Assembly (NCBI RefSeq): GCF_000212375.1
Contig: NC_015501.1
Location: forward strand, 1,054,001 to 1,118,000
DNA length: 64,000 nt
From: Porphyromonas asaccharolytica DSM 20707
GTDB lineage: Bacteria > Bacteroidota > Bacteroidia > Bacteroidales > Porphyromonadaceae
Reading direction: 5' to 3'
The notes beneath the pieces were generated by a model. It did not search any database. It worked only from the letters and a program-made list of their open reading frames with translations, and was not told the DNA's origin. Below, piece by piece: positions 3,851 through 22,313 of the stretch. Both the position numbers and the translations under genes were made by a program. Every line of letters starts with the position of its first letter. Within the stretch, counting starts at the first letter, position 1.

Positions 3851-4483
3851 ATGAAATATTTCTCTAAGATCTTTATCTGCTCATTGTCACTCCTCAGCCT
3901 TCTTTCTGCTAAAGGACTGAAGGGTGCTGACGTGCCACCTATTTATAGCGACATGTCTGAGTCTTTTATGCAAGCTCCTGACACGCTTGCCGAAGAAGAT
4001 ATCGTCAGTATACTCCTACCTGAAGTAAGAGTCTCGGGGACCCCTCATAAGCCTCTCACTAAGTCTGAGCGCTACGCCTATTGGCGTCGTGTGCGAGATG
4101 TCAAGAAGGTGCTACCTATCGCAGAGGAGCTTAGCGGGATGATTATTGAGACGTATGAATATGTAGAGACTTTTCCCACAGAGCGTGAGCGCCGTGAGCA
4201 TTTGTCTCGTGTCAAGAAAGAACTGGTCAAGGAGTATACGCCTCGCATGAAGGATCTGACCCTCGGACAGGGGCTGCTCCTCATCAAGTTGGTGAATAGA
4301 GAGACGGGCTCTACGGGGTATGAGATTGTTAAGTCGATCTATGGCGGATTCACCGCTACGTGGTACAATGCTTTTGCAAAGCTGTACGGGGGCAACCTAA
4401 ATATGAAGTTTGATCCTGAGCATGTAGAGGACGATGCTGTCACGGAGCGCATCATCTACCTATGGAAAAACGGCTTGCTCTAG
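3851..4483 (+). CDS. DUF4294-like exported protein
   Basis: The 210-residue protein has a signal peptide (MKYFSKIFICSLSLLSLLSA). After about residue 55 comes a conserved-looking domain, with LPEVRVSG, YAYWRRVRDVKKVLPIAEE, KELVKEYTPRMKDLTLGQG, KLVNRETGSTGYEIVKSIYG and TATWYNAFAKLYG. This matches my memory of DUF4294, a Bacteroidota-restricted family of unknown function. It ends 13 bases before the convergent miaA gene, so the two transcripts meet tail to tail. The function is unknown; the secreted location is inferred from the signal peptide. Confidence 0.8.
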   Translation: MKYFSKIFICSLSLLSLLSAKGLKGADVPPIYSDMSESFMQAPDTLAEEDIVSILLPEVRVSGTPHKPLTKSERYAYWRRVRDVKKVLPIAEELSGMIIETYEYVETFPTERERREHLSRVKKELVKEYTPRMKDLTLGQGLLLIKLVNRETGSTGYEIVKSIYGGFTATWYNAFAKLYGGNLNMKFDPEHVEDDAVTERIIYLWKNGLL

Positions 4484-4496
4484 CACGAGCCCTTCC

Positions 4497-5438: not shown

Positions 5439-5515
5439 TAAATATGATACTTCGGCGAGGAGGAGCTATCTACTGATCAAGGATCACACGCTCTGCTGAT
5501 CAGAGAGGGTACGCA

Positions 5516-7018
5516 TTAGGTGCGATCCTTGCGAATGACATCGTGTGCGCCTCCCTCGATGATAGAGGTTGAGGAGACAAGTGTCAGCTTAGCATTCTTA
5601 CGGAGAGACTTCAGATCGACTGTGCCACAGCTACTCATCGTAGCTTTGATCTTGCTGAGCGTCTGATCGAGTGTATCCTTCATCGGACCAGCGTAGGGGA
5701 CATAGCTGTCGACGCCCTCCTCAAACTTCATCGTCGTGGAGGTTCCTCCGCCGTCATATCGCTGCCAGTTGTGAGCACGGTTTGACCCTTCGCCCCAGTA
5801 CTCCTTGACAATATTGTTGCCGATGCGGAGCTTCTCTGTTGGGGACTCGTCGAAGCGAGCGAAGTAGCGTCCCATCATAAGGAAGTCGGCACCCATAGCC
5901 AGCGCGAGCGTCATGTGGTAGTCGTGTACGATACCACCATCGCTACAGATAGGTACATAGATGCCTGTCTCATGGTAGTAGTCGTCACGTGCTTTGGCAA
6001 CGTCGATAACCGCCGTAGCTTGCCCACGTCCGATGCCCTTTTGCTCGCGTGTAATGCAGATAGAGCCACCTCCGATGCCGACTTTGACAAAGTCTGCGCC
6101 AGCCTCTACGAGGTAGCGGAAGCCCTCCCGATCGACCACATTGCCTGCGCCTACGATGACGCTGTCGCCATACTGCTCACGTATCCAAGCGATGGTCTCC
6201 TGCTGCCATACAGAGAAGCCGTCAGACGAATCGATACAAAGCACATCAGCTCCTGCCTCTACTAGCGCTGGTACGCGCTCCTTGTAGTCACGGGTGTTGA
6301 TGCCGGCACCGACCATCAGCGTCTTGTTGTGCGGGTTCTGTAGCTCGAGTGGGTTCTCCTTGTGACTATCATAATCCTTGCGAAATACGAAGTAGCAGAG
6401 TCGCTGCTCCTCATCAATGATCGGGAGCGCATTTAGCTTGTGCGCCCAGATGATGTCATTTGCCTCGCTTAGCGAGATCCCTTTGCATCCTGTGGTCAGA
6501 CGCTCGAAGGGCGTCATAAAGTCAGCCACCTTGCGATCCAGTGAGTCTGTCGATAGTCGGTAGTCTCTACTGGTGACGATGCCGCATAGTACGCCATCAG
6601 GCGTGCCATCATCAGTCACACCGATGGTAGAGTGCCCCATACGCTGTGTGATAGCTAGCACATCAGCGAGCGTATCTTTAGGACTAACGTTGGCATCGCT
6701 CCGTACGAAGCCCGCCTTAAACTTCTTGACACGAGCTACCATCTCTGCTTCCTCCTCGATGGGTTGTGACCCAAAGATGAAGGATAGTCCACCGTTTCGT
6801 GCTAGTGCGATAGCCATCGTGTCATTGCTGACGCTCTGCATGATAGCCGATACGAAAGGTATATTAAGATTGATGCGAGACTCTTCCTTTGCAGGGCTAT
6901 ACTTAGCCAGTGGGGTGCGTAGGGAGATCTTGTCCACAGTGCACTCGGGCGTTGTCAGTCCTGGGATGAGTAGATACTCGCCAAAGGTGTGTGACGTGTC
7001 AGGGAAGATGATTGCCAT
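5516..7018 (-). CDS. guaB: Inosine-5'-monophosphate dehydrogenase
   Basis: This enzyme oxidises IMP to XMP with NAD+, the committed step of guanine nucleotide synthesis. The 500-residue length is typical. The TIM barrel is interrupted by a CBS pair (about 100-220, with [14 protein letters not shown]). The catalytic-cysteine loop is [16 protein letters not shown] (about residues 312-327), preceded by [20 protein letters not shown] and KVGIGGGSI. Downstream are [19 protein letters not shown] and [11 protein letters not shown]. The C-terminal stretch has a serine-rich tail instead of the common GxxY flap end seen in short forms. It is the second gene of a minus-strand run after the DUF4293-like gene. 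Confidence 0.95.
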
Positions 7019-7089
7019 AAGAAAGCGAATGAATAGTGGTGGGTGAATGGTGTAAGCTCCTACGAGAGCTATCTAGATAGGCGTTTGTA

Positions 7090-7551
7090 CTAGCGTAGTC
7101 TATTGGAGGCTCGTACGAGGATGTCATCCTTGATGATATTGCGCATAGCCAGGTACTGACACAGTAGATTGATGATCGGCAGTATGATCCAAAACCGTAT
7201 CTGGGTCGTCGCCTGCATGAGATCAGTCTGTCGCCAGAGCATATAGCCGAAGGCAACGATAGCAGCCACCATCAGGAGGAGACCGATGATCGTCAGACGT
7301 ATCTGTAACTTACGTCTCTTGTAGAGGAAGATTGTCACAAAGGAGATGATCGTCACCAATGAGGTCAGAACGAACGAGACTAGATTAAAGTACTTAATAC
7401 TAGTCCACCCACTGACGATGAGCCCTGTAAAGTTGGCTGCATAGATAGTCTCCGGATCAGACTGTGTGACGGTGAAGAGCGTGAAGAGCAGTAGTAGGGT
7501 TGCGGTCACCCCACTGAGAAATAGGTATAGAGTCTGAATGCGTTGCCACAT
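7090..7551 (-). CDS. DUF4293-like four-helix membrane protein
   Basis: The 153-residue protein begins MWQRIQTLYLFLSGVTATLL and has four hydrophobic segments (about 8-27, 45-70, 80-105 and 112-140). The N-terminal WQRIQTLYL and the segment order fit DUF4293, a Bacteroidota membrane family of unknown function. It lies 31 bases downstream of the omega-like RNA polymerase gene, in an order (bamD, omega-like, DUF4293) that I recall as conserved in Bacteroidota. No function can be given. Confidence 0.8.
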   Translation of the reverse strand: MWQRIQTLYLFLSGVTATLLLLFTLFTVTQSDPETIYAANFTGLIVSGWTSIKYFNLVSFVLTSLVTIISFVTIFLYKRRKLQIRLTIIGLLLMVAAIVAFGYMLWRQTDLMQATTQIRFWIILPIINLLCQYLAMRNIIKDDILVRASNRLR

Positions 7552-7582
7552 AGTGAAGGTACGATCTAGAGGTTTGCCTTAC

Positions 7583-7921
7583 TTAGTCTTGTGACTCCTC
7601 ATTTGGCAGACGATAGTACACCTCACCATTGAGAAACTCGGTGGTGGCTACGAGCGTTGATTTGGGTAGTTGCTCGTAGTACTTAGAGATCTCAATCTGC
7701 TCTCTATTTTCCGTTGGAGTCTCATCGAGATTCTCTTGGTAGCTGGCAACCTCTTGTATCTTCTCTCGTATCTCGTCACGCATCTCTACGGATAGCTGGT
7801 TAGCACGCTTAGAGATGATACGGACAGTCTCGTAAATATTCCCAGTCTGCTCCCAAAGCTCTGGAAGGGAGCGGGTGATCGTAGTCTGTGGTACGGATAG
7901 CTTCTTATTTTTTGTTGTCAT
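7583..7921 (-). CDS. RNA polymerase omega (Rpb6-type) subunit-like protein
   Basis: I take the ATG at 7921 (MTTKNKKLSVPQTTITRS); an upstream in-frame ATG at 7981 adds 20 residues that look like untranslated leader. The 112-residue protein has the omega/Rpb6-like helix region GNIYETVRIISKRANQLS (about 28-45) and an acidic mid-section, then a tail with LVATTEFLNGEVYYRLP. In Bacteroidota the omega subunit is of this divergent type and is often annotated only as hypothetical. It would sit on the beta-prime subunit and stabilise the polymerase. It follows bamD after 71 bases on the same strand. Confidence 0.75.
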   Translation of the reverse strand: MTTKNKKLSVPQTTITRSLPELWEQTGNIYETVRIISKRANQLSVEMRDEIREKIQEVASYQENLDETPTENREQIEISKYYEQLPKSTLVATTEFLNGEVYYRLPNEESQD

Positions 7922-7992
7922 AATGCGAAATTGGAGTCTTAGTATGTGAGTATAGTGCAGGCGGAGGAACCCCTCCGTCATGCAGCCATTGT

Positions 7993-8805
7993 CTAGCTGA
8001 CGATCATGCGCTGTGCACGATCACGTAGGGTCTTAGCACGCTTGATGTGCTTCCCATCGGGGAAAGCATTCTCATAGTTATAGTAAGCATCTATGACCTC
8101 GCGTAGTCGCCCTTGCTTCTTGCTCTCTACACTATTGATCGCCTGTTGATAAGAAGCCTCCACAATGATAAAGAGTAGATCTTCACGATGCTTGGTGTAG
8201 GGGTAAGATTTGAGCGCATTGCGAGCCGTGATGATGGCTGAGATGTAGTTGTTGCCTAGATAAGTGCCTAGATTGTAGTATAGGTCAGCCGTGTTTAGCT
8301 CTTTCTTGGCTAGGTTATCTTGCAGATCGAAGAGCATCTGCTCGACCTCCTTACGATGCTCATTCTGAGGATAAGTCTCTAGGAAGCTCTGTAGCTCCTT
8401 GAGCGCACTATAAGTGACAGACTGATCTAGGCGTGGGTCGGGAGCTATACGATAGAGTGCTAGTCCCGTCTTGTAGTGTGCCTCTGTGGCTCGCGGATCT
8501 TGTGGATACTTGGTGTATAGCCTACGAAAGTACTCGGCAGCACTAGACTCTTGCTTGTTTTGTAGGAGTGCGTCGGCCATGATGTAGAGAGCCTGTGCGC
8601 CCTCCTGCGTGCCTTCGTAGTGAGGTAAGACATCGACCATGAGCTCAGCCACGCGGCCATACTTACCCTCGTTGTAGTACTTCTTGGCATAAGAGTAGCG
8701 GAGCGTGGGGTCTTTGGACTTCTGTATGCGCATATACTCAGCGCAACTACTAGTGAGCAGGAGCCAGCTGAGAGCTAAGAGGCTGAGGAGCGTTTGTCTT
8801 GTCAT
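7993..8805 (-). CDS. bamD: BamD-like outer membrane assembly lipoprotein
   Basis: The 270-residue protein has a lipoprotein signal ending LLLTSSC (Cys at about residue 21) and then five TPR-like helical pairs typical of BamD (for example RYSYAKKYYNEGKYGRVAELM, QALYIMADALLQNKQ, AEYFRRLYTKYPQDPRATEA, LKELQSFLETYPQNEHRKEV). BamD is part of the BAM complex that folds beta-barrel proteins into the outer membrane. Length and repeat layout are normal. A -7-type motif lies 30 bases upstream of the start, so this gene likely heads the run through guaB and miaA. Confidence 0.9.
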   Translation of the reverse strand: MTRQTLLSLLALSWLLLTSSCAEYMRIQKSKDPTLRYSYAKKYYNEGKYGRVAELMVDVLPHYEGTQEGAQALYIMADALLQNKQESSAAEYFRRLYTKYPQDPRATEAHYKTGLALYRIAPDPRLDQSVTYSALKELQSFLETYPQNEHRKEVEQMLFDLQDNLAKKELNTADLYYNLGTYLGNNYISAIITARNALKSYPYTKHREDLLFIIVEASYQQAINSVESKKQGRLREVIDAYYNYENAFPDGKHIKRAKTLRDRAQRMIVS

Positions 8806-8834
8806 ACTTAATACCTACAGGATACCATTGCACG

Positions 8835-8842
8835 CAAAGGTA
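8835..8842 (-). promoter_or_regulatory. -7 motif (TACCTTTG) upstream of bamD
   Basis: On the minus strand the motif reads TACCTTTG, an exact TAnnTTTG match. It would start transcription at about 8828, some 23 bases before the bamD ATG. I see no convincing -33 TTTG at the expected distance. Confidence 0.5.
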
Positions 8843-8898
8843 CGAAAAAAGAGATTAGAACGAGATCGCTCATAGTCCCCGGTTATAGAAAAATGGAA

Positions 8899-8938
8899 GA
8901 TACCCTAACCGTCTCATCGATGAGTCGGCTAGGGTATC
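8899..8938 (-). terminator. Intrinsic terminator after prs
   Basis: The arms GATACCCTAACCG (8899-8911) and CGGCTAGGGTATC (8926-8938) pair with one wobble on the RNA, and the inner bases CTCATCGATGAG extend the stem. On the minus strand it is followed by a T-rich stretch (TTCCATTTTTCT). It lies just 20 bases beyond the prs stop codon. Confidence 0.85.
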
Positions 8939-8958
8939 CTTGTATAGATTACCTGCGT

Positions 8959-9897
8959 CTAGAAGGTGTAGAGCGAGCTGATAGACTCGTGGCTACAGAC
9001 GCGACGGATAGACTCGGCAAAGAGCTCGGCGACGCTGATGATGCGCACCTTCTCGCTCTTCTTAGAGTAGGGGATTGAGTCGGTGAAGATCATCTCTGTC
9101 AGACCAGACTGATCAATGCGCTTCGTAGCTGGATCGCTCATGACGGCATGAGTCGCAAAGGCTCTGACAGACTTAGCGCCATGCTCTAGCATGAGGTCTG
9201 CAGCCTTGGTCATGGTGCCAGCGGTATCGACGATATCATCGACGAGGATTACATCCTTGCCTGTGACATCACCAATGATCGTCATCTCGGCCACCTCGTT
9301 TGCCTTAGCGCGACGCTTGTGGCAGATGACCATAGGTACGCCAAAGTGGCGTGCGTAGCTGTTGGCACGCTTTGTACCACCCACGTCAGGGGTAGCGATG
9401 CAGAGGTTGTCCACGGGTATGTTGTGCTCAATATACTCTGTGAAGACGGTAGAACCATATAGGTGGTCTACTGGAACGTTGAAGAATCCTTGTATCTGGT
9501 CTGCGTGTAGATCCATCGTGATGAGGCGGGTGATGCCAGCCACGGAGAGTAGGTCGGCAATGAGCTTAGCGCCGATGGAGACACGAGGCTTATCTTTGCG
9601 ATCTTGTCTAGCCCATCCGAAGTAGGGTATGACCGCTGTGATGTAGTGTGCGGAGGCACGCTTGGCCGCATCGATCATAAGTAGGAGCTCCATGATGTTG
9701 TCGGCATTGGGATAGGTCGACTGGACGAGGAAGAGGTCCTTGCCACGGATGCTCTCTTCGTAGGATACGGCAAACTCGCCATCGGCAAAGTGCTCGATAC
9801 GCATTTTGCCCAAGGGGCAGCCCAGTGAGTCACAGATCTTCTCGGCGAGGTTCTGAGAGGCTGAGCCAGCAAATACTAGGTAGGGTAGTTCGTTCAT
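8959..9897 (-). CDS. prs: Ribose-phosphate pyrophosphokinase
   Basis: This enzyme makes PRPP from ribose 5-phosphate and ATP, feeding purine, pyrimidine, histidine and NAD synthesis. The 312-residue length is usual. Visible motifs are the N-terminal PYLVFAGSASQNLAEKI, the flexible ATP loop ARQDRKDKPRVSIGAK, the divalent-metal region MDLHADQIQGFFNVPVDHLY, and the PRPP-binding loop DVILVDDIVDTAGTMTKAA. It has its own -7 motif upstream and a terminator downstream, so it is probably a single-gene transcript. Confidence 0.95.
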   Translation of the reverse strand: MNELPYLVFAGSASQNLAEKICDSLGCPLGKMRIEHFADGEFAVSYEESIRGKDLFLVQSTYPNADNIMELLLMIDAAKRASAHYITAVIPYFGWARQDRKDKPRVSIGAKLIADLLSVAGITRLITMDLHADQIQGFFNVPVDHLYGSTVFTEYIEHNIPVDNLCIATPDVGGTKRANSYARHFGVPMVICHKRRAKANEVAEMTIIGDVTGKDVILVDDIVDTAGTMTKAADLMLEHGAKSVRAFATHAVMSDPATKRIDQSGLTEMIFTDSIPYSKKSEKVRIISVAELFAESIRRVCSHESISSLYTF

Positions 9898-11690: not shown

Positions 11691-13709
11691 TTGAAGAGTA
11701 ACTGTCGTATGAAAAGTAAATCATCGTATCGCCCCCTGCGATACAGTATGGGGAGTCAGAGTAGAGAGTCACAATATGACGACTCTTCTAGGGGTGCACA
11801 GCTGATCTCGTTTCTGTGTCGTGCTTTCATGGGTGCTGTCTGTCTTTTGATCCTTTGCCTGCTCTCGCCTGTTGTGACATTGGCTCAGAGTACGACAGCT
11901 CAGCCTGATAGCACCGCACTAGCACAGACTCATCCTCATACTGTAGCGAGAGATACTATAGCTACAGACACTATAGCGACTCATAGTACGCAAGCTCTCG
12001 ATAAGGCATCTGATAAGACATCTGATAAGACATCTATAGATAGTCTCGTTGTCAAAGAGCAGCGAGAGCTGGTGGTCACAGACAGTGTCACAGTCTCCTC
12101 GACTATGCGTAGGCATCGTCAGGCAGTAGCCGATGGACTGCATATAGCTGATGTGAAGACCGCTTATAGTGCCGATGGGTCGGCTCTTGTTGTCTCCTTT
12201 GTAGCGCGTTATGGAGAGCGTGTCGTTGCTTCTCGTGAGGCGCTCCTTGTGACCCCAGTCTATGTACAGCCAGAGGCCTTAGGCGAGGTACGTCTGCCAC
12301 AGCTACGTATCAATGGGCGTCAACGGGCCAGAGCTTATCGTCGCGAGGTCTCCTTTTGGAGTCATCAGGAGTACGAGCAGCGCAAGCCGCTATTGCTGAC
12401 CACCATTGCTACACCACGACATATGCTAGACACTATAACCAATAGTGCCCGATATAGCTATCGTATGCCACTAGCCAACTACAAGACAGGAGGTAGCCTA
12501 CGCTTAGACTTAGAGGTAGAGGATTGCTGTAAGCTCTATCCCGTAGCTAGTAAGGACTATGCGATAGCACCTCACATCTTGCCAGCGCCAGACACGGTGC
12601 GTATCGTGCAGACCGTCTCTGACACCGTGCGTATTGAGGCACCCAAGCCTCTAGAGATAGCACGTCCTGATCTCTACGCATCCAATGTCTCCTTCATCAG
12701 ACCTGCTAAGGAAGAGGCTAAGGTGCGTAGCCAGAGTCTCTCCGTACGGATTACCTTTGAGGTGGCTAAGGCTGAGGTCTTGCCCAACTTTGCCAATAAC
12801 CGAGCTGAGCTGACACGGGTAGATCGTGAGATACGTCCTCTCTTGACAGACCATGATAGTACCTATACCGTGCGAGAGGCCAGCATCTATGGGTACGCCT
12901 CTCCCGAGGGGGGGTATGAATACAATCGGAACCTCTCCGAGTCACGAGCTTATGGCTTTAGGAACTATCTAGAGCGTATCTATGGTATGTCCCGTATCCC
13001 CACCTTTGATGTGCAGGGACGTAGTGAGGACTGGGAGGGGCTCCGTAAGCACATCGTCGAGTCGTCACTCCCCGAGCGAGACGAGATACTTCGTATCATA
13101 GATCGTGAGAGTATCAGCTACGATGCTCGTGATCAGCAGCTCAAGCGTCTCCGTGGGGGACGAACCTATAAGACGCTGCTGGGAGATATCTATCCGCTCC
13201 TGCGTCGTATAGATATGACGCTACAGTATGGCGTACGAGACTTCGAGCAGCGTGAGGTTGCTACAATCATTGAGACCCGCCCTCAAGACCTCTCACAGCG
13301 AGAGATCTATGATCTAGCGCATATGCGCAATAGCGATGCCGTGGCTCGTACACAGCGGAGCAACTATGGTCGTGAGTACGACATAGCCGCACGCTACTTC
13401 CCCAAGGATGCGATCGCTCAGATCAACGCTTCCTCAGCAGCCCTCATACGTGGGGAGCTAGAGATAGCCCATCTGTACCTCGAGCGTGTAGCACAGGATC
13501 CACGTGCCTACAACAATCTAGGCGTCTATCACTGGATGCGTCAGGAGTATGACCAGGCAGCCGACTACTTCCGTAGGGTGCCACAAGAGAGTCAAGAGAT
13601 GGCACAGCGCAACCTCACACAGATGCTCCAAGAGCAGCAGCAGCGCAAGGCGCTACAGCAGCAGCATAAAGCCGCGTCTGGGGCTACCAAGTCTACGACG
13701 ACACGTTAA
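11691..13709 (+). CDS. OmpA-domain/TPR fimbrial-operon protein (DUF3868-like)
   Basis: The 672-residue protein has a hydrophobic export segment (about 45-66, CLLILCLLSPVVTLAQS) after a long N-terminus, so the true start may be further in (Met7, Met20 or Met47). A Thr/Asp-rich low-complexity region (70-120) follows, with three tandem 12-base units giving DKxSDKTSDKTS. Then comes a beta-rich domain (about 150-300) as in DUF3868, an OmpA-like peptidoglycan-binding motif (ASIYGYASPEGGYEYNRNLSESRA, about 398-421), and a C-terminal TPR-like helical part (about 580-650). It probably tethers the fimbria machinery to the cell wall. It overlaps nothing but is closely spaced on both sides. Confidence 0.75.
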   Translation: MKSNCRMKSKSSYRPLRYSMGSQSRESQYDDSSRGAQLISFLCRAFMGAVCLLILCLLSPVVTLAQSTTAQPDSTALAQTHPHTVARDTIATDTIATHSTQALDKASDKTSDKTSIDSLVVKEQRELVVTDSVTVSSTMRRHRQAVADGLHIADVKTAYSADGSALVVSFVARYGERVVASREALLVTPVYVQPEALGEVRLPQLRINGRQRARAYRREVSFWSHQEYEQRKPLLLTTIATPRHMLDTITNSARYSYRMPLANYKTGGSLRLDLEVEDCCKLYPVASKDYAIAPHILPAPDTVRIVQTVSDTVRIEAPKPLEIARPDLYASNVSFIRPAKEEAKVRSQSLSVRITFEVAKAEVLPNFANNRAELTRVDREIRPLLTDHDSTYTVREASIYGYASPEGGYEYNRNLSESRAYGFRNYLERIYGMSRIPTFDVQGRSEDWEGLRKHIVESSLPERDEILRIIDRESISYDARDQQLKRLRGGRTYKTLLGDIYPLLRRIDMTLQYGVRDFEQREVATIIETRPQDLSQREIYDLAHMRNSDAVARTQRSNYGREYDIAARYFPKDAIAQINASSAALIRGELEIAHLYLERVAQDPRAYNNLGVYHWMRQEYDQAADYFRRVPQESQEMAQRNLTQMLQEQQQRKALQQQHKAASGATKSTTTR

Positions 13710-13723
13710 GAGATAGTACGGCT

Positions 13724-14824
13724 ATGGTATATAGAAGCATCCCTTTACGAGCTAAGCCAGTCACCCTCAGTAGTGCCTCGCTAAGCGTCCTTTTCAGACG
13801 TGTCATGCGCCTAGCTGTAGGTCGCTATGGGGTGCCTGCTCTGCTCCTGCTGAGCCTGGTGGGGTTGACCAGCTGTGATATGGACGACCCGCAAGATCTC
13901 TGCTGCAAGCGTGTAGACCTAATCTATCGCTACGTCCCCTCACCCGCACAAGGCGATCAGTACCAGCAGGAGATCAGAGGAGGTATGAGACACTTCCTCT
14001 ATAGTGCTGATAGTATCTACCTAAGAGAGGTTTATGCCCAGAGAGACAATCCTCAGTATGTCCGTCTCTCTAACCTCACCCCTGGCGCTTATCTGATGCT
14101 GACCGTAGCCAATAGTTCGCCAGCAGGTACGTTGCTAGAGCACTTCGAGCCAGGGGCTACGCTAGGCGAGGCACAGCTACGTTTAGCCAAGGCTTTGGAG
14201 CAGACTGCGGGTCTCTATCAGAACAGTGAAGAGCTCTTTTATAACCTGCGCGCCTTCCGCACCAATGGAGACACCCCGATCCGCTATTACTGTGACCTAT
14301 CTAATGTGCACTGTCATCTGCAGGTGCAGGTAGAGTGGGAGGATACCCCCAAGCATCTTAGCGGATCCTACGAGCTACGCGCTAGTCGTATAGCAGCGGC
14401 TTACGATCTAGGCAGATGGTATGGCGAGCCTATCGTGATAGCACGTGGCAATGGTCATACGCCGACCGAGTCTACGCTAACCGATGTGGTGCATCACTTC
14501 CCCACAGAGCGGGGAGAGATGATTACCCACTATCAGGAGCGTCAGCTCTTTGACATGAAGCTTTACTACGACCTTATCTCGCTACGCTATCGAGATGATG
14601 CGATTCCTGTGTTGCGACTCTACTATCAGGGAGAGCCCGTCACGACCGAGATAGATCTGAGCAAGGCCTTTAAGGAGTGGCGCTGGCACCCCGATCTTAT
14701 GCCAGCGCAGCTCTTCCGTATCAAGATCTTGATTCACCCCGATGGGAGTGTCACCGTGAGCCAGTGGGTCTCAGGCAACGTGCTAGACTGGGTCGATGGT
14801 GGTACGCTGGGAATGAGTGATTAG
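13724..14824 (+). CDS. FimB/Mfa2-like fimbrial anchor lipoprotein
   Basis: The frame has a lipoprotein box LVGLTSC. The signal looks normal if translation starts at the internal ATG at 13805 (MRLAVGRYGVPALLLLSL, Cys at residue 24 from there), so 13724 may be too long. The mature protein begins DMDDPQDLCCKRVDLIYRYVP, in keeping with the FimB/Mfa2 family, which caps the base of the fimbria and anchors it in the outer membrane. It follows the OmpA-type gene by 14 bases and precedes the fimbrillin at 15045. Family identity is from the operon position and the lipoprotein plus beta-domain layout. Confidence 0.75.
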   Translation: MVYRSIPLRAKPVTLSSASLSVLFRRVMRLAVGRYGVPALLLLSLVGLTSCDMDDPQDLCCKRVDLIYRYVPSPAQGDQYQQEIRGGMRHFLYSADSIYLREVYAQRDNPQYVRLSNLTPGAYLMLTVANSSPAGTLLEHFEPGATLGEAQLRLAKALEQTAGLYQNSEELFYNLRAFRTNGDTPIRYYCDLSNVHCHLQVQVEWEDTPKHLSGSYELRASRIAAAYDLGRWYGEPIVIARGNGHTPTESTLTDVVHHFPTERGEMITHYQERQLFDMKLYYDLISLRYRDDAIPVLRLYYQGEPVTTEIDLSKAFKEWRWHPDLMPAQLFRIKILIHPDGSVTVSQWVSGNVLDWVDGGTLGMSD

Positions 14825-15044: not shown

Positions 15045-16415
15045 ATGAACAAAAAAATCAAGGCACTCCTAACCATTGGAGTCCTAGCTCTGGTAGCTCT
15101 AACAAGCAGTTGCCAGTCAGACAACAAGGCGCCTAAGGGGGATCAGCTCGCTGAGACCTATCAGGAGCCCAACACGTTTACCATCCGCTTCTCAGTACCT
15201 TCGGGTGATCCCGTCAAGTACGACCTGCGTCGGATACAAGACGAGAGAGAGTACACGATCGACAAGGTCATGCTCTACGTCTTTGAGGATGGCAAGCTAG
15301 CGCTTGATCCTATCCCCATCAACAACCCCGCTCTGCAGCCAGATCCTCAGGATCCTACAGCGATGGTCTACACGCACAGCTCTACGGACAACAAGATCCC
15401 ACAGGGCCTCGTCACCATCTACGCTGTCGCCAATGAGGATATCACGACACCGCTCGCTAAGGGCGATGCGGTTAGCAAGCTTACGGCTCAGCTCGCCAAG
15501 GGAGAGCAGAAAGCCAATGAGTCATCCAGCCTCGTGGTCAACGGAGACGGCACGACAGGCACTACCGACAAGATCCCTATGGTCGGAGTCAAGGAGGATG
15601 TTGTGCTCTTCAAGCAAAACGTAACAGTCGAACTAGAGCGTATCGTCGCTCGTATCGACATCAAGAACAATGTCGCCGACAATCAGCTCAACATCACTTC
15701 AGTTACCCTGGAGAATGCTAACTCAAAGAGCATCCTTGTCGATGATCATATTTCCAACGTACCCGCTGCTAGCACGAAGGTAGGTGGTGTCAAGCCCTTC
15801 CTCTTCACCCCAGGGGCAGCACGTATGGAGCATAATAAGGTTTTCTATCTCTATGAGGGCAACCAAGCCGGTACGACCGCTGATGAGGCTACCTATGTAG
15901 TAATCAAAGGTACATATCGTGGTGTAGAGAAGGAGTACAAGATCCCCTTCTTTGACAAAGCCAAGAACAAGGGTATCGACATCGTCCGTAACACTATCTA
16001 TCGTATCGTACTTGGTACAGACAACACTAAGTACAACCTCACCTTCTCAATTGAGGTGACTGATTGGGACGGTCCAGTCAACACGGTCGTTACTTGGGAC
16101 GCTATCACTGTAGCTTTTGACGGCACAGCCTCTACTGGCTTTAGTTACGATGCTAAGAAGCACGAACTCACCGCTCCTAAGACCGCAGGCACAGCTTACT
16201 TCACCACCTCGCACAACTTCGGGACCGCTCCCACCTTTACCGCAACGGCAGAGGCTTCAGCAGCTAGCTGGCTTAAGGCAAGCATTGATGGTAGTGGCAA
16301 GGTCAAGATTGAAGTTTCCGAAGCTGCTACGACCGCACGCCATGGTCTTGTGACCGTCACAGGCACTAATCCAGCCTACCAGTATCAGATCCTAGTAAAG
16401 CAGGGTGCGAAGTAA
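15045..16415 (+). CDS. Fimbrillin-family lipoprotein, probable structural subunit
   Basis: The 456-residue protein has a lipoprotein signal (MNKKIKALLTIGVLALVALTSSC). It is followed by an N-terminal fimbrillin domain (about 45-330, with YTIDKVMLYVFEDGKL, VTIYAVANEDITT and VTVELERIVARIDIKNN), as in P. gingivalis FimA/Mfa1-type pilins. The C-terminal ~110 residues (from ITVAFDGTAST) form a second beta domain resembling a BACON or Ig-like module. Lipid-modified pilins of this kind are cut by an Arg-type protease and polymerise by strand exchange. Whether this is the major stalk or a minor subunit cannot be told. It lies 220 bases after the anchor gene. Confidence 0.75.
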   Translation: MNKKIKALLTIGVLALVALTSSCQSDNKAPKGDQLAETYQEPNTFTIRFSVPSGDPVKYDLRRIQDEREYTIDKVMLYVFEDGKLALDPIPINNPALQPDPQDPTAMVYTHSSTDNKIPQGLVTIYAVANEDITTPLAKGDAVSKLTAQLAKGEQKANESSSLVVNGDGTTGTTDKIPMVGVKEDVVLFKQNVTVELERIVARIDIKNNVADNQLNITSVTLENANSKSILVDDHISNVPAASTKVGGVKPFLFTPGAARMEHNKVFYLYEGNQAGTTADEATYVVIKGTYRGVEKEYKIPFFDKAKNKGIDIVRNTIYRIVLGTDNTKYNLTFSIEVTDWDGPVNTVVTWDAITVAFDGTASTGFSYDAKKHELTAPKTAGTAYFTTSHNFGTAPTFTATAEASAASWLKASIDGSGKVKIEVSEAATTARHGLVTVTGTNPAYQYQILVKQGAK

Positions 16416-16627: not shown

Positions 16628-16866
16628 AGATCGGGGTTACAGCGTTTGATGAGTGGAATTGTCGTGCTGACGTAGCTTGTGTAGGGGCGGACCTACGTGT
16701 CCGCCCGCAGAATAGACTGCGCTCAGGTGAGGACGGGCGGACACACAGGTCCGCCCCTACGGTGGGAGCTTCCACCCCGCCGAGCGGTTCACCCGAAGAG
16801 AAGTCGACCGAGCTTCCGAAACGAGAAAAAACTTCGCATTTTACTTGCATATGAACTTAGAAAGCA
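16607..16866. repeat. ~250-bp dispersed repeat with an 80-bp GC-rich inverted pair
   Basis: The core 16681-16760 begins GTAGGGGCGGACCTACGTGT and ends with its near-reverse complement. The whole unit is repeated in inverted orientation and almost unchanged at about 59407-59657; the 80-bp core is identical there as far as I can compare. More divergent copies are at 21765-21869 and 35908-35987. With no gene inside, it looks like a REP- or MITE-like element. It occupies most of the gap before the first adhesin. Confidence 0.85.
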
Positions 16867-16949: not shown

Positions 16950-18761
16950 ATGAATAAGATATATCGCATAGCGAGTGCCACCCTTGCGATGGTACTCCTA
17001 CTACTCACCATGGGGAGCTGCTCTAAGGAGAACCATCTAGCCCCAGATGCTCAGCAACAAGCTGGTGCAGGTCAGCTCACCTTCAAGCTCGACAACGATG
17101 CGCTACGTAGCGTTCCTGCCGAGGAGTTTGAGAAGGCGGTCGACCCCGCAACCGTTTGGTGCGTCTTCGTCACCCCGACAGGATCAAGCGCACAGACTGT
17201 CAAAGATGCTAAGCCAGCCACTAAGGCTTCCTCGGGAGAGTATATGATTAAGGCAGACTTTGAGGGCGCAGCACAGATGTTTGTCATCGCTAACGTGCAG
17301 GATGCTCTCAAGACAAAGCTCGAGGGACTCACCACAGCAAGCACGCTAGACGAAGTGCAGAAGCTTGTTGTCGAGAACGCTCTTGGGGACAACACTACGG
17401 CTCCCGACAAGTTCATCATGACCTCAGAGCTTATGAACGTGATGCTACCCGCTGTGGGTGGAACACCTTATAAGGTCGCAGATGCTATCAAGCTGAAGCG
17501 TCTAGCTGCACGCTTTGACGTGATCAGCGAGGTGCCAGGGCTCCAACTCACGACTATCTCTGTTGCTAAGCGTGTCACCACCTCTACGCTACTCAATGTA
17601 AATGAGACCGGCACGCTAGCCACAACGGCTACCGACTATGCTGTGGCAGGTGGCAAGCAGCTACTTCATAAGATCTACAGCTACCAGAACACCAACAAGG
17701 GTGGTACGGCAAACGCAACCTCCTTCACGCTCAAAGGTAACTACGGTGGTAAGGCAATCAAAGACATCAAGGTAGATCTCAAGGATGCCACAAACGGAGA
17801 GACTATCGCTGTCCAGCGCAACTACTGCTACCGCATCATCATCAAGCCCGCAGGAGACGATGGTAAGCCAATCAATCCAGATGATCCTACTTCCGCATGG
17901 AAGGTAACCGTCAAGGTGATCGACTGGAACGAAGCCGCTGCCGACCTCGCCAACTACAGCGATGAGGATCTAGCAAATCAAGGTAGTTTAGATTTAAGCA
18001 ATACGGTCAATCCTACAGGGCCGAACCTCCTCAATGCTGTCGCTGAGTACAACATTGACATCACAGGGACGAAGTTTACCACGAGCCAGACCAACGAAGC
18101 TGGTAACACCGGTTACTTCACTTGGACAGAGGCTAAGGCACTCACGATGCCTTCTGGCTATCACCTACCTACTCGCTACGAGTGGACAGCTATCCTAGGT
18201 TCTGACTACTATGCTTCAAATAGCAGCTCAACTGTCTATGTCGACTTCTCCCGAAACGAATCTGAGAAGGATGTCTCTCTAACGGTTCAGATCCCCGTAA
18301 AGCCAAGTTCTACGGTTACGACGATGGCTTGCCTGCAGGATGTCAAGCAAGTTAGTACCGAGTCTGCTACCTATATGATTCGCTATAAGAACAACGATAC
18401 CTATCGCTCCGCTTGGCGCTACTCCTATGTAGATGGTCCTATCGCTGGTCAGAAGGTGCTCAAGATCGAGTCTGTACCTGTCAAGGCGGGTCTAACGATA
18501 GAGCAGCTCAATAAGGATTACTTTGCTAATCCTAAGGTAAGCAAGTATGTCAAGACGATCTACCTGCCTACAACTGGCTACAACTACAACCGGGATGGTT
18601 CGGGCTCTGGCGACTATCGTGGTTCCCACGGGGGCTACTGGTCTGCCACGGAGGGCAGCAGTAGCAAAGCCAGCCTCGTGGCCTTCTACAGCTTGTACGC
18701 GAGCGTCAGCTACAACAGTCAGACGCTTCGCTTCGTGCTGCGCCCCTTCCGAGGAATATAA
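16950..18761 (+). CDS. Fimbrillin-like adhesin A with variable C-terminal (lectin-like) domain
   Basis: I chose the ATG at 16950 because it gives a lipoprotein signal (MNKIYRIASATLAMVLLLLT, then MGSC) identical in layout to the next gene; the frame is open further upstream into the repeat. The 603-residue protein has an N-terminal fimbrillin-like beta region (about 30-330). The C-terminal domain has the signature of a FISUMP/C-type-lectin fold: LPTRYEWTAILG, YLPTTGY, GGYWSATEG and VLRPFRGI at the end. The last ~57 codons (18582-18752) differ from gene B only at first and second codon positions, as in DGR targets. It would sit at or near the tip of the fimbria. Everything before about residue 415 is almost identical to gene B. 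Confidence 0.85.
   Translation: MNKIYRIASATLAMVLLLLTMGSCSKENHLAPDAQQQAGAGQLTFKLDNDALRSVPAEEFEKAVDPATVWCVFVTPTGSSAQTVKDAKPATKASSGEYMIKADFEGAAQMFVIANVQDALKTKLEGLTTASTLDEVQKLVVENALGDNTTAPDKFIMTSELMNVMLPAVGGTPYKVADAIKLKRLAARFDVISEVPGLQLTTISVAKRVTTSTLLNVNETGTLATTATDYAVAGGKQLLHKIYSYQNTNKGGTANATSFTLKGNYGGKAIKDIKVDLKDATNGETIAVQRNYCYRIIIKPAGDDGKPINPDDPTSAWKVTVKVIDWNEAAADLANYSDEDLANQGSLDLSNTVNPTGPNLLNAVAEYNIDITGTKFTTSQTNEAGNTGYFTWTEAKALTMPSGYHLPTRYEWTAILGSDYYASNSSSTVYVDFSRNESEKDVSLTVQIPVKPSSTVTTMACLQDVKQVSTESATYMIRYKNNDTYRSAWRYSYVDGPIAGQKVLKIESVPVKAGLTIEQLNKDYFANPKVSKYVKTIYLPTTGYNYNRDGSGSGDYRGSHGGYWSATEGSSSKASLVAFYSLYASVSYNSQTLRFVLRPFRGI
18582..18752 (+). other. Candidate DGR variable region of adhesin A
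   Basis: Aligned without gaps to 20556-20726, 23 codons differ (about 36 bases). All but one difference is at codon position 1 or 2, and most pairs are NNC/NNC (such as GGC/TAC, AGC/TAC, CTC/GGC). About 22 of the 36 positions have an A in one copy. This is what random replacement of template adenines in AAC-rich codons gives. Bases between the variable codons are identical (for example TACTGGTCTGCCACGGAG). Confidence 0.8.
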
Positions 18762-18775
18762 TACCCTCAACCGTA

Positions 18776-18810
18776 GGCGGAGCGCTAGACGATAAGCGTT
18801 GCGCTCCGCC
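18776..18810. other. GC hairpin just after adhesin A, DGR target-type
   Basis: GGCGGAGCGC (18776-18785) and GCGCTCCGCC (18801-18810) pair perfectly around a 15-base loop, 24 bases after the last variable codon. The same arms follow adhesin B. In known DGRs, a hairpin or cruciform beyond the variable region helps target recognition. No T-run follows, which speaks against a plain terminator. Confidence 0.75.
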
Positions 18811-18929
18811 CGCCATGCGGTCTCTCTCTGTTAGCTGTCTCTTGCTCTGATGAGACGTTTCACCATTAGATCAAAGTGCGAAGTAACAGAGGCGAGATAA
18901 GTTATACTACAATATTACAGAACAATGAT

Positions 18930-20735
18930 ATGAACAAAATATATCGCATAGCGAGTGCCACCGTAGCGATGGTACTCCTACTACTAACCATAGGGAGCTG
19001 CTCTAAGGAGAGCCAGCTAGCCCCAGAGGATCAGCAACAAGCTGGTGCAGGTCAGCTCACCTTCAAGCTCGACAACGATGCGCTACGTAGCGTTCCTGCC
19101 GAGGCATTTGAGAAGGAGGTCAACCCGGCAAGCGTTTGGTGCGTCTTCGTCACCCCGACAGGATCAAGCGCACAGACTGTCAAAGAGGCTAAGCCAGCCA
19201 CTAAGGCTTCCTCGGGAGAGTATATGATTAAGGCAGACTTTGAGGGCGCAGCACAGATGTTTGTCATCGCTAACGTGCAGGATGCTCTCAAGACAAAGCT
19301 CGAGGGACTCACCACAGCAAGCACGCTAGACGAAGTGCAGAAGCTTGTTGTCGAGAACGCTTTAGGGAACAATACTACGGCTCCCGACAAGTTCATTATG
19401 ACCTCAGAGCTTATGAACGTGATGCTACCCGCTGTGGGTGGAACACCTTATAAGGTCGCAGATGCTATCAAGTTAAAGCGTCTAGCAGCACGCTTTGACG
19501 TGATCAGCGAGGTGCCAGGGCTCCAACTCACGACTATCTCTGTTGCTAAGCGTGTCACCACCTCTACGCTACTCAATGTAAATGAGACCGGCACGCTAGC
19601 CACAACGGCTACCGACTATGCTGTGGCAGGTGGCAAGCAGCTACTTCATAAGATCTACAGCTACCAGAACACCAACAAGGGTGGTACGGCAAACGCAACC
19701 TCCTTCACGCTCAAAGGTAACTACGGTGGTAAGGCAATCAAAGACATCAAGGTAGATCTCAAGGATGCCACAAACGGAGAGACTATCGCTGTCCAGCGCA
19801 ACTACTGCTACCGCATCATCATCAAGCCCGCAGGAGACGATGGTAAGCCAATCAATCCAGATGATCCTACTTCCGCATGGAAGGTAACCGTCAAGGTGAT
19901 CGACTGGAACGAAGCCGCTGCCGACCTCGCCAACTACAGCGATGAGGATCTAGCAAATCAAGGTAGTTTAGATTTAAGCAATACGGTCAATCCTACAGGG
20001 CCGAACCTCCTCAATGCTGTCGCTGAGTACAACATTGACATCACAGGGACGAAGTTTACCACGAGCCAGACCAACGAAGCTGGTAACACCGGTTACTTCA
20101 CTTGGACAGAGGCTAAGGCACTCACGATGCCTTCTGGCTATCACCTACCTACTCGCTACGAGTGGACAGCTATCCTAGGTTCTGACAACTATGCTCCCAA
20201 TAATTTGATCGCTGTCTACTTCAACCAAAACGACGCTAAGAAGGATGTCTCTCTAACGGTTCAGATCCCCGTAGAGCCAAGTTCTACGGTTACAACGATG
20301 GCTTGCCTGCAGGATTACAAGCAGGTTAGCGCAGAGTCTGCTACCTATATGATCCGCTATAAGGACAACGATACCTATCGCTCAGCTTGGCGTTACTCTT
20401 GGGTAGATGGTCCTATCGCTGGTCAGAAGGCGCTAAAGATTGAGTCTGTGCCTGTCAAGGCGGGTCTAACGATAGAGCAGCTCAATAAGGATTGGTTTGC
20501 TAAGCCTAAGGTAAGCAAGTATGTCAAGACGATCTACCTGCCTACAACTGGCTACGGCTACAACCAGAATGGTTCGGGCTCTGGCCTCGGTCGTGGTTCC
20601 TACGGGTACTACTGGTCTGCCACGGAGTACAGCAGTAGCTATGCCTACGGCGTGGGCTTCAGCAGCACGTACGCGTACGTCTACAACTACAGTCAGACGT
20701 TTCGCGGCGCGGTGCGCCCCTTCCAAGGAATATAA
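18930..20735 (+). CDS. Fimbrillin-like adhesin B with variable C-terminal (lectin-like) domain
   Basis: The 601-residue tandem paralogue of adhesin A starts at the ATG at 18930 with the same lipoprotein signal (MNKIYRIASATVAMVLLLLT, then IGSC). The bodies are almost identical at DNA level (long blocks between 19400 and 20185 show no change), pointing to recent duplication or gene conversion. A patch near 20188-20250 differs from A by ordinary substitutions and a 3-base length change. The final domain ends YYWSATEY...AVRPFQGI, the lectin-like fold. The 3'-terminal 171 bases are diversified relative to A. It is followed by a tighter hairpin than A and by the MutS-like gene. Confidence 0.85.
   Translation: MNKIYRIASATVAMVLLLLTIGSCSKESQLAPEDQQQAGAGQLTFKLDNDALRSVPAEAFEKEVNPASVWCVFVTPTGSSAQTVKEAKPATKASSGEYMIKADFEGAAQMFVIANVQDALKTKLEGLTTASTLDEVQKLVVENALGNNTTAPDKFIMTSELMNVMLPAVGGTPYKVADAIKLKRLAARFDVISEVPGLQLTTISVAKRVTTSTLLNVNETGTLATTATDYAVAGGKQLLHKIYSYQNTNKGGTANATSFTLKGNYGGKAIKDIKVDLKDATNGETIAVQRNYCYRIIIKPAGDDGKPINPDDPTSAWKVTVKVIDWNEAAADLANYSDEDLANQGSLDLSNTVNPTGPNLLNAVAEYNIDITGTKFTTSQTNEAGNTGYFTWTEAKALTMPSGYHLPTRYEWTAILGSDNYAPNNLIAVYFNQNDAKKDVSLTVQIPVEPSSTVTTMACLQDYKQVSAESATYMIRYKDNDTYRSAWRYSWVDGPIAGQKALKIESVPVKAGLTIEQLNKDWFAKPKVSKYVKTIYLPTTGYGYNQNGSGSGLGRGSYGYYWSATEYSSSYAYGVGFSSTYAYVYNYSQTFRGAVRPFQGI
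20556..20726 (+). other. Candidate DGR variable region of adhesin B
   Basis: This is the counterpart of 18582-18752, with the same fixed framework and different residues at 23 codon sites. Tyr (TAC) is frequent here where A has Gly, Ser or Asn. Since many sites carry no A in either copy, both genes seem to have been rewritten independently from one shared template. Confidence 0.8.
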
Positions 20736-20749
20736 TACCCTCAACCGTA

Positions 20750-20773
20750 GGCGGAGCGCTACAGCGCTCCGCC
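20750..20773. other. Perfect GC hairpin after adhesin B, DGR target-type
   Basis: GGCGGAGCGC (20750-20759), loop TACA, GCGCTCCGCC (20764-20773). A 10-bp perfect stem with a 4-base loop matches the size of the hairpins described beyond DGR variable regions. It lies 23 bases after the last variable codon, the same spacing as in A. Confidence 0.8.
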
Positions 20774-20983: not shown

Positions 20984-21670
20984 ATGTTAACCATTCGCGA
21001 TATACTACAGCAAGAGCAGACGAATAGAGCACACATCTATCTCTATCGTCGTGGCCTATTTTATCAAGCGTTTAACTACTCGGCTTATCTCCTCTACCAC
21101 TTGGTATACCCATTTGAGGTGACCTCTCTGCGTAATACGAGAATCAATAAGCGCTACTATATGGTGAGCTTCCCAGTGCAGTTGCTCTCGAGCTCCTCGG
21201 CGAAGGCAAAGTGCGATGCGCTAGCTGATAGTCAGGTGCTGCGCTACACCCCCTCAAGAAGTGCAAAAGCCACTCTCACCGAGTCGTATGATGAGTGGTG
21301 TCTTCGCTATACTCCTGTGCGTGGTAAGGGCGCCGCCACGACTCCGCCTACGTCGCCTACGTCTCCTACATCTCCTACACAAGGCGAGGGAGACGCTCCT
21401 AAAGCCTCCACGGTTAATTCGTCTCAAGAGCTGGGTGTGTGCAGTAACCTATCGGAGTTGCTACAAGATCTAGAGCAGGAGTCGGAGCAAGAGTTTCTAT
21501 CCATGATCGCAAAGAGTGTCTCTTACGAATTGACGCTAGACGACAAAGCGAGTCTCTGTGACTGGCTGGTGTACTGTATCTTGAAGCTCCCCATGCAGCG
21601 TCTCTGCCCGATAGCGGCTCTGGACCAGCTCGACAAACTTCAACAAGAGCTTCGTCAGAAGCTCTCCTAG
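20984..21670 (+). CDS. Small protein with MutS domain-I-like N-terminus, possible DGR accessory (MSL-type)
   Basis: I chose the ATG at 20984 (MLTIRDILQQEQTNRAHIYL); an in-frame ATG at 20960 adds 8 residues. The 228-residue protein has an N-terminal stretch, IYLYRRGLFYQAFNYSAYLL, that resembles the LFYRxGDFYExFxxDA motif of MutS mismatch-binding domain I, followed by RYYMVSFPVQLL. A linker of four PTSPTSPT-like units (near residue 120) leads to a helical C-terminal half (LDDKASLCDWLVYCILKLPM). No ATPase, clamp or other MutS domain is present. To my knowledge, MutS-like small proteins have been reported as accessory genes of some DGRs. Its place right behind two diversified adhesins supports that role, which I infer. 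Confidence 0.6.
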   Translation: MLTIRDILQQEQTNRAHIYLYRRGLFYQAFNYSAYLLYHLVYPFEVTSLRNTRINKRYYMVSFPVQLLSSSSAKAKCDALADSQVLRYTPSRSAKATLTESYDEWCLRYTPVRGKGAATTPPTSPTSPTSPTQGEGDAPKASTVNSSQELGVCSNLSELLQDLEQESEQEFLSMIAKSVSYELTLDDKASLCDWLVYCILKLPMQRLCPIAALDQLDKLQQELRQKLS

Positions 21671-21764
21671 GGAGGCTGTGACGTCCAAGCCAATACATCG
21701 TCCTATCAAGCCGGACGGTCGATACGAGTACTCTTTTGTAGTACAGCGATACGAGTAATCCGCT

Positions 21765-21869
21765 GTAGGGGCGGATCTAAGTGTCCGCCCGTCCGCATTG
21801 GAGCGCTGTCCGCCCGTCCGCATTAGAGCGCTGTATGCCCTGAGGGCGGACACGCAGGTCCGCCCCTAC
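21765..21869. repeat. GC-rich dispersed repeat, copy downstream of the MutS-like gene
   Basis: Begins GTAGGGGCGGATCTAAGTGT and ends with the near-reverse complement. Between the arms is a tandem pair GTCCGCATTnGAGCGCTGT. It is a longer, divergent member of the family at 16681, 35908 and 59512. No coding capacity. Confidence 0.8.
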
Positions 21870-21898
21870 ACGAATCACACCAACACGACGAATCATAG

Positions 21899-21936
21899 CC
21901 GTGGGTCGGAGGGGCAAAGCTCCGAACGACCCACGG
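21899..21936. other. GC-rich hairpin in the gap before tRNA-Val
   Basis: CCGTGGGTCG (21899-21908) pairs with CGACCCACGG (21927-21936), and the loop has a second GGAG/CTCC pair. No T-run, so a terminator is unlikely. The gap 21671-22313 otherwise holds only repeats; I searched it for a reverse transcriptase or a template copy of the adhesin ends and saw neither. Confidence 0.6.
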
Positions 21937-22015
21937 ATGCTGGACAGCGCCAGGTCTATCGACCCCTTGAGGGTCGGACTAAACGAATCTACAGCTCTAT
22001 CTAATCACTAATCCG

Positions 22016-22183
22016 ATAGCCACGTGGAAAATCTAAAATCTCCACGTGGCTATTTTTTATTCTCCACGTAGGGAAGAAACGATTCCTCCGAAGTTTCATT
22101 TGATTCCTCCGAAGTTTCATTTCATCTCCACGTGGAGAATTTTTATTTCCTCCCTAGGAATTTGAAAATATCCACGTGGAGAT
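22016..22183. repeat. Three-hairpin CCACGTGG element, copy 1
   Basis: Three palindrome pairs built on CCACGTGG. The first (AGCCACGTGGAAAAT ... TCCACGTGGCT) is followed by a T-rich run, as in a terminator. A larger pair encloses two direct copies of GATTCCTCCGAAGTTTCATTT, and a third small pair closes the unit. The layout is the same as at 45649 and 62149 with scattered, mostly compensated changes, so structure seems to be kept. Confidence 0.85.
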
Positions 22184-22227
22184 GGCGCTTCCATGGTCGA
22201 AATGGTCGAAATGGCACCGGCGGAGAG

Positions 22228-22258
22228 TTGGTGGGGTCGAAATTTTGTTGTAACTTTG
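22228..22258 (+). promoter_or_regulatory. Promoter of tRNA-Val
   Basis: TTGG at 22228-22231 (-33-like) and TAACTTTG at 22251-22258 (-7), 19 bases apart. Transcription would start near 22265, some 50 bases before the tRNA. Confidence 0.7.
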
Positions 22259-22313
22259 CGGTACCAAGTAAAAACGGGTCCCGAACGTGGGGCCTTCTTG
22301 TTGGGTAATTATC

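What the first reader, a model, noticed from the sequence alone, without database searches (positions are those of the whole stretch)
16950..20773. Tandem fimbrial adhesins diversified in a DGR-like way
Adhesins A and B are nearly identical for over 1,000 bases (few changes before codon ~415), yet their last 171 coding bases differ at about 36 positions in 23 codons. Only one of these changes is at a third codon position, while ordinary divergence elsewhere in the pair is mostly silent third-position change. Most variable pairs are NNC/NNC, fitting template codons AAC in which each A is replaced at random. Fixed framework codons lie between them. The domain is lectin-like (FISUMP/C-type-lectin) at the end of a fimbrial protein, the kind of target DGRs are known to diversify in Bacteroides-type pili.
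Basis: partly seen in the sequence, partly recalled or inferred. Interest (0 to 1): 0.95.

Follow-up and report, generated by a model that had tools for sequence, protein, structure and literature searches.

The report
Pilus-tip adhesins from a lost mutator
Two neighbouring pilus-tip adhesin genes carry the signature of a bacterial targeted-mutation machine (a diversity-generating retroelement), but the machine itself was not found in this genome, which leaves two apparently frozen variants and one leftover helper gene.

Summary
In detail: adhesins A and B differ at 36 bases in 23 codons at their 3' ends, one change at a third codon position, none silent. The proposed diversity-generating retroelement (DGR) explains how the difference arose, but not what the genome holds now. 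In the closed 2.19-Mb genome the searches found no DGR reverse transcriptase, only five identical group II intron enzymes, and no template-like copy. However, a congener (G011) has the homologous pilus operon ending in a homologous adhesin followed by a complete DGR, and its template adenines coincide with A/B variable sites (24 of 32, against 21 of 121 invariant sites; p=1.5e-9). The ORF after B (20984-21670) is related to the DGR accessory protein MSL; relatives sit beside a DGR in G011 and in 6 of 7 other genomes hit in the order. Best reading: tandem type V tip adhesins diversified by a DGR whose Avd, template and RT were later lost, leaving two frozen variants and an orphan MSL gene. Known kind, engine-less variant.

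The parts
11691..13709 (+). OmpA/DUF3868 protein of the pilus operon
   Evidence: Pfam DUF3868 30.0 bits, cut-off 27; G011 counterpart 46% over 356 aa, E=8e-94
13724..14824 (+). Mfa2-like anchor pilin
   Evidence: Pfam Mfa2 18.8 bits, below cut-off 21.2; G011 counterpart 31% over 366 aa, E=5e-46
15045..16415 (+). probable stalk fimbrillin
   Evidence: G011 counterpart 27% over 464 aa, E=4e-19; BACON match at 401-453 below cut-off
16950..18761 (+). Adhesin A, tip-pilin type, DGR target
   Evidence: 603 aa; weak Fimbrillin_C and FISUMP matches; place in operon
18582..18752 (+). Variable repeat (VR) of A
   Evidence: coincides with template adenines of G011
18776..18810 (+). GC-rich inverted repeat after VR A: 10-bp stem, 15-nt loop
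18930..20735 (+). Adhesin B, tip-pilin type, DGR target
   Evidence: 601 aa; 34% over 253 aa to the G011 DGR target, E=2e-32
20556..20726 (+). Variable repeat (VR) of B
20750..20773 (+). GC-rich inverted repeat after VR B: same 10-bp stem, 4-nt loop TACA
   Evidence: in the window the arm sequence occurs only at these two loci (4 matches)
20984..21670 (+). MSL-type DGR accessory gene, orphan
   Evidence: 30% over 79 aa to the G011 ORF between DGR target and Avd, E=7e-9; best Pfam match MutS_I (PF01624) 15.2 bits, below cut-off 20.6; relatives beside DGRs
21671..22313 (.). Stretch where Avd, template and RT would be expected; no remnant found
   Evidence: tblastn/blastn with G011 parts; six-frame reading

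Best explanation
A and B are tandem tip adhesins of a type V (Bacteroidales) pilus. Their last 57 variable-end codons are variable repeats written by a DGR: an error-prone reverse transcriptase copied a template rich in AAC codons, put random bases opposite adenines, and the cDNA replaced the ends of both genes, so framework codons were renewed without silent changes while exposed residues were randomised. The engine (Avd, template, RT) that follows the accessory gene MSL in the congener's operon is missing from this genome and was probably deleted after the last rounds of mutagenesis. Shown: the pattern, coincidence with an independent template, the orphan MSL gene, failure to find RT or template. 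Inferred: that a DGR acted in this lineage, that its loss was recent, that the variable face binds ligands.
For: Third-position contrast and absence of silent changes. 24 of 32 comparable A/B variable sites are adenines in the G011 template, against 21 of 121 invariant sites, p=1.5e-9; the excess holds at codon position 1 (14 of 17 vs 10 of 34) and position 2 (10 of 14 vs 11 of 37). G011: homologous operon, then MSL, Avd (PF22296 53.0 bits, cut-off 40; PHROG 'Avd protein of DGR' E=2e-20), template, and an RT with LPIGNLTSQ and YVDD; its template and VR differ at 21 of 162 bases, 19 at template A. MSL relatives: of 7 other genomes hit among 393 in the order, 5 have Avd and an SQ-motif RT next to it, 1 has a TR/VR pair and the start of an RT cut by the contig end, 1 has no RT. 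Passages of PMC10053308 name MSL a DGR accessory protein with Pfam attribution PF01624, the best Pfam match of the window ORF. Inverted repeat with 10-bp GC-rich stem 24 bases after the last variable base in both genes.
Against: No RT, template or Avd cassette in this genome, so the defining parts are absent. 8 of 32 compared variable sites are not adenine in the G011 template, including the single third-position change (template AAC there); the templates belong to proteins only 34% identical. A protein elsewhere in the genome (1749405-1749728) reaches the bAvd cut-off, but it stands between histidine-degradation-type genes without RT or repeats. The hairpin loops (TACA; 15 nt) do not fit the phage consensus GRNA, and control flanks of other DGRs are mixed. 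No other isolate was compared.
Confidence: 0.86

Rival explanations
1. A DGR engine still acts on A and B in trans, in other strains or through a mobile element that this isolate lacks; the window strain is one engine-less member of a population with the full cassette.
For: The variable ends show no silent differences, so the last mutagenesis was recent relative to the flank; intact MSL ORF; PMC3521204 passages report targets far from their RT and a cassette that lost its RT while another enzyme sufficed.
Against: No engine in this genome; no exact 18-base framework match in viral contigs. Other strains not available.
Confidence: 0.12
2. Ordinary diversifying selection plus recombination among alleles, with no retroelement, made the variable ends.
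For: A recent gene-conversion tract exists in the same pair (17508-18206); exposed loops of a lectin fold could coincide with another species' template codons by selection alone.
Against: Selection changes residues but does not keep third bases fixed: 1 of 23 observed against a mean of 15.9 of 23 expected by codon usage; 12 of 23 codons changed at both first and second base with the third kept; orphan DGR accessory gene.
Confidence: 0.04
3. The five group II intron reverse transcriptases of the genome, or an unrecognised enzyme, drive the mutagenesis.
For: They are the only RTs found.
Against: TPQGGNLSP motif and five identical copies; no template-like repeat for any enzyme to copy; PMC3521204 passages: DGRs found only with their own RT clade.
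Confidence: 0.01

Closest known systems
DGR-diversified type V tip pilins of Bacteroides (Macadangdang et al. 2024, as cited in PMC12632263; passage seen, the work itself not held)
   Same: [quoted passage not shown] pilus operon of anchor, stalk and tip
   Different: Here two tandem targets, and no RT, template or Avd in the genome
Complete DGR of congener G011 (L072, 3992-9703, minus strand)
   Same: Homologous operon, homologous adhesin C-terminus, MSL gene in the same place, coincident variable codons
   Different: One target, and Avd, template and SQ-motif RT present
DGRs with inactivated RT (PMC3521204, passages seen)
   Same: Target repeats that keep a clean mutagenesis pattern after loss of the enzyme
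   Different: There TR and a broken RT remain; here both were not found at all and MSL remains
G043 locus (L104)
   Same: FISUMP-type gene with a DGR-like end (judged by eye) followed by an MSL relative and no RT
   Different: MSL cut to 74 aa; single target; different family of the order
Bordetella phage BPP-1 DGR
   Same: A-specific mutagenesis of the C-terminal end of a lectin-fold protein; GC-rich hairpin after VR
   Different: Phage tail protein, complete cassette, GRNA loop (PMC3240598, passages seen)

Membership tests
Diversity-generating retroelement (working cassette) | RT with (I/V/L)GxxxSQ motif | tested here: not met
   Only five identical RTs with TPQGGNLSP in the genome; G011 RT as query finds only these
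Diversity-generating retroelement (working cassette) | Template repeat similar to VR | tested here: not met
   BLAST of 232 bases finds only A and B as long matches, next best 25 bases at E=0.07; two patterns with N at variable sites, up to 3 mismatches, find only A and B
Diversity-generating retroelement (working cassette) | Avd accessory protein beside the cassette | tested here: not met
   No Avd-like match at the locus (best in window E=0.026 at 4118-4231); one bAvd-family protein elsewhere, at 1749405-1749728, reaches the cut-off but stands alone
DGR target gene (VR) | Differences confined to sites that are A in the template | tested here: inconclusive
   Own template absent; against the G011 template 24 of 32 sites are A, p=1.5e-9
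DGR target gene (VR) | Non-silent variation at codon positions 1 and 2 with fixed framework | tested here: met
   19/16/1 by codon position, 0 silent
DGR target gene (VR) | VR at the C-terminus of a lectin-fold (FISUMP/CLec) protein | tested here: inconclusive
   FISUMP matches below cut-off; structure prediction failed, mean pLDDT 28.2; no PDB relative by sequence
DGR target gene (VR) | Hairpin/cruciform after VR: 7-10 bp GC-rich stem, 4-nt loop, 4-34 bp away (phage DGRs, PMC3240598 passages) | tested here: inconclusive
   B: 10-bp stem, 4-nt loop, 24 bases from the last variable base; loop TACA not GRNA; A: same stem, 15-nt loop. Could also be a terminator; controls mixed
DGR accessory protein MSL | MutS_I-like ORF next to DGR parts | tested here: met
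   Related ORF between target and Avd in G011; beside DGR parts in 6 of 7 other genomes hit in the order. MutS_I score itself below cut-off
Type V (Bacteroidales) pilus operon | Anchor, stalk and tip pilins together | tested here: met
   Mfa2-like, fimbrillin-like and adhesin genes in order, homologous to G011 operon; most family scores below cut-off, assembly not tested

The most novel reading that the evidence does not exclude
A split DGR: the species keeps a target-plus-MSL platform, and a mobile or strain-variable engine that arrives in trans re-mutates both adhesins at once and is lost again, so that strains alternate between searching and frozen states. MSL is kept because it serves the platform, not the engine.
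Probability: 0.12. Interest if true: 0.75.

Novelty: new variant of a known kind. Interest (0 to 1): 0.52.

Why it matters
Surveys that start from the reverse transcriptase cannot see such loci: paired targets with a clean mutagenesis pattern but no engine. Here paralogues in one genome reveal the pattern without a template, and an orphan accessory gene points to the lost cassette. A second engine-less locus in another family (G043) suggests that losing the engine after diversification may recur, which bears on the open question whether DGRs are kept for continuous or occasional use. It also suggests that two fixed tip variants of one pilus exist in an opportunistic human anaerobe (species name recalled from genome size, not from a call).

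Tried and rejected
Tried without gain: structure prediction of the C-terminal domain from A and B (mean pLDDT 28.2, not used, no fold search made); PDB sequence searches (no match); viral contigs pattern (0); genome-contig scan (23 stretches matched a pattern, 1 relative, a Fibrobacterales contig, 38% over residues 49-95, not DGR-like by eye). The bAvd-family protein at 1749405-1749728 was followed and set aside. Group II intron RTs considered as engine and rejected. Of 19 genus RT loci looked at (L001, L052-L069), a region-4 motif was read in 9: one SQ (G011), eight SP; the other 10 gave no motif by my expression, so they rest on weak tblastn only. Template/VR base counts: L102 19 of 19, L103 22 of 22, L105 29 of 29, L099 16 of 20, G011 19 of 21 at template A; L100 11 of 34 in two fragments, which does not fit and may be mispaired; no TR/VR pair found in L101, whose contig begins at MSL, nor in L104. 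L073-L080 were fetched and used only in the bulk tblastn; the two weak relatives of B in the own genome (228008, 491337) were not resolved, as picked another ORF or none.
Full report
Observation. The window is bases 1054001-1118000 of a closed genome of 2,186,370 bases, 99.95% complete. I recall that size as Porphyromonas asaccharolytica DSM 20707; no call names it. Adhesins A (16950-18761) and B (18930-20735) align with one two-codon gap. Codons 1-413 hold 25 differences, codons 414-544 hold 41, and codons 545-601 hold 36. By codon position the three parts read 5/5/15, 12/9/20 and 19/16/1. The last part has 23 changed codons, none silent, 12 of them changed at both first and second base. Third-position changes against the rest of the pair: p = 6e-8. 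Independent codon choice by the genes' own usage predicts 15.9 third-base mismatches among those 23 codons (minimum 8 in 20,000 draws); 1 is seen.

Engine search. PF00078 finds five RTs in the genome, identical over 430 residues, with TPQGGNLSP and YADD; the 207-residue segment tested matches the group II intron RT model best. The DGR RT of a congener finds only these five, at E=0.001. BLAST of 232 bases around the A variable end finds A and B, and then nothing longer than 25 bases. Two framework patterns, with N wherever a template adenine could lie, and up to 3 mismatches, find only A and B. So neither RT nor template was found. One bAvd-family protein reaches its cut-off, but it lies between genes that look like histidine degradation, with no repeat of 50 bases or more within 15 kb.

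The congener. Of 26 genomes of the genus, 9 hold a relative of B at E<=1e-10, the own genome included, and 13 hold an RT, the own genome included. In G011 the two meet. On the minus strand of L072 the order is OmpA/DUF3868 protein, Mfa2-like anchor, fimbrillin, adhesin (7511-9703), MSL-like ORF (6792-7385), Avd (6279-6653), template (5515-5676), RT (3992-5362) with LPIGNLTSQ and YVDD. Avd is recognised by PF22296 (53.0 bits, cut-off 40) and PHROG 3206; NCBIfam's Avd model scores 57.4, below its cut-off of 80. Template and VR differ at 21 of 162 bases, 19 at template A. The window's first operon genes match those of G011 in the same order at 46, 31 and 27% identity, and B matches the G011 adhesin at 34%.

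Independent template test. Aligning A, B and the G011 adhesin by protein and laying the G011 template on it, 24 of 32 comparable A/B variable sites are adenine in that template, against 21 of 121 invariant sites (p=1.5e-9). The excess holds separately at first (14 of 17 vs 10 of 34, p=4e-4) and second positions (10 of 14 vs 11 of 37, p=0.009). Four of the 36 variable sites lie before the start of the template and were not compared. Eight of the 32 are not adenine there, among them the single third-position site. Selection on the same surface residues could give part of this overlap; it would not keep the third bases fixed.

The orphan accessory gene. The ORF after B (20984-21670, 228 residues) is 30% identical over 79 residues to the G011 ORF between target and Avd (E=7e-9). 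Its best Pfam match is MutS_I (PF01624), below cut-off. Passages of PMC10053308 name MSL as a DGR accessory protein and attribute PF01624 to it. Among 393 genomes of the order, 8 match, the own included. Of the 7 others, 5 have Avd and an SQ-motif RT beside it (L099-L103), one has a TR/VR pair and the first part of such an RT at the contig end (L105), and one has none (L104, genome G043). G043 has no match to the DGR RT anywhere at E<=0.001; its MSL is cut to 74 residues and follows a FISUMP-type gene whose end looks DGR-like by eye. In the genus, G011 matches well, and G013 and G025 weakly (E=0.002 and 0.06); those two were not followed beyond fetching the G013 stretch. Between the window's MSL gene and the tRNA-Val at 22314 no trace of Avd, template or RT was found.

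Downstream hairpin. Both genes carry the inverted repeat GGCGGAGCGC/GCGCTCCGCC beginning 24 bases after the last variable base, with loops of 15 (A) and 4 (B) bases; the arm occurs nowhere else in the window. Phage DGR hairpins have 7-10 bp GC-rich stems, 4-base GRNA loops, 4-34 bp from VR (PMC3240598, passages). B fits all but the loop sequence. Controls are mixed: G011 has perfect stems of 9 and 10 bp after VR and none of 7 or more after the template, but three of five other VR flanks (L099, L103, L105) have no perfect stem of 7 and three template flanks (L100, L102, L103) do. A terminator is not excluded.

How it most likely works. A DGR once rewrote the ends of both genes from one template. 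Each retrohoming renewed the framework, which is why silent differences that mark the flanking codons (11 of 110 unchanged residues) are missing in the variable end (0 of 34). Gene conversion separately homogenised 17508-18206. The engine was then lost; the small number of later changes suggests recently, by the same reasoning that PMC3521204 applies to DGRs with broken RTs (passages). What remains is probably a pilus with two fixed tip variants. Steps shown: pattern, coincidence, accessory gene, failure to find the engine. Steps inferred: time and manner of loss, binding function.

Known and new. DGR-diversified tip pilins of Bacteroides are in print (PMC12632263, passages, citing Macadangdang et al. 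2024), as are DGRs with broken RTs, two VRs, or remote targets (PMC3521204, passages). The library searches for DGR with Porphyromonas (13 papers, 11 listed, seen as a listing), for P. asaccharolytica with reverse transcriptase (5 papers, listing), and for orphan targets (none) showed no description of this locus; Wu et al. 2018 and Macadangdang et al. are not held, so earlier mention cannot be excluded.

Noticed in passing
G000:C1 506474, 770799, 992618, 1127958, 1271261: Five RT genes identical over 430 residues, group II intron type; one lies about 10 kb beyond the right end of the window.
   Followed up: partly
window 17508-18206 and the matching part of B: 699-bp tract without any difference between A and B, bordered by diverged sequence: recent gene conversion.
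   Followed up: partly
L104 9779-11288 (genome G043): Second engine-less locus: FISUMP-type gene with a DGR-like end, then a 74-residue MSL relative, no DGR RT found in the genome.
   Followed up: partly
L072 3992-9703 (genome G011): Complete DGR on a pilus-tip adhesin in a Porphyromonas-type genome, with an HU-like ORF after the RT (3193-3705).
   Followed up: partly
L063/L066 (G015) and L062/L067 (G016): Pairs of adjacent distinct RT genes, possibly a two-RT defence system.
   Followed up: no
genome G015: 13 matches to adhesin B, a large expansion of pilus/FISUMP-type proteins without a DGR RT nearby in the loci fetched.
   Followed up: no
window about 16680-16765 and 21765-21870: Similar palindromic intergenic repeats (GGGGCGGACC..GTCCGCCC type) on both sides of the adhesin pair.
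   Followed up: no
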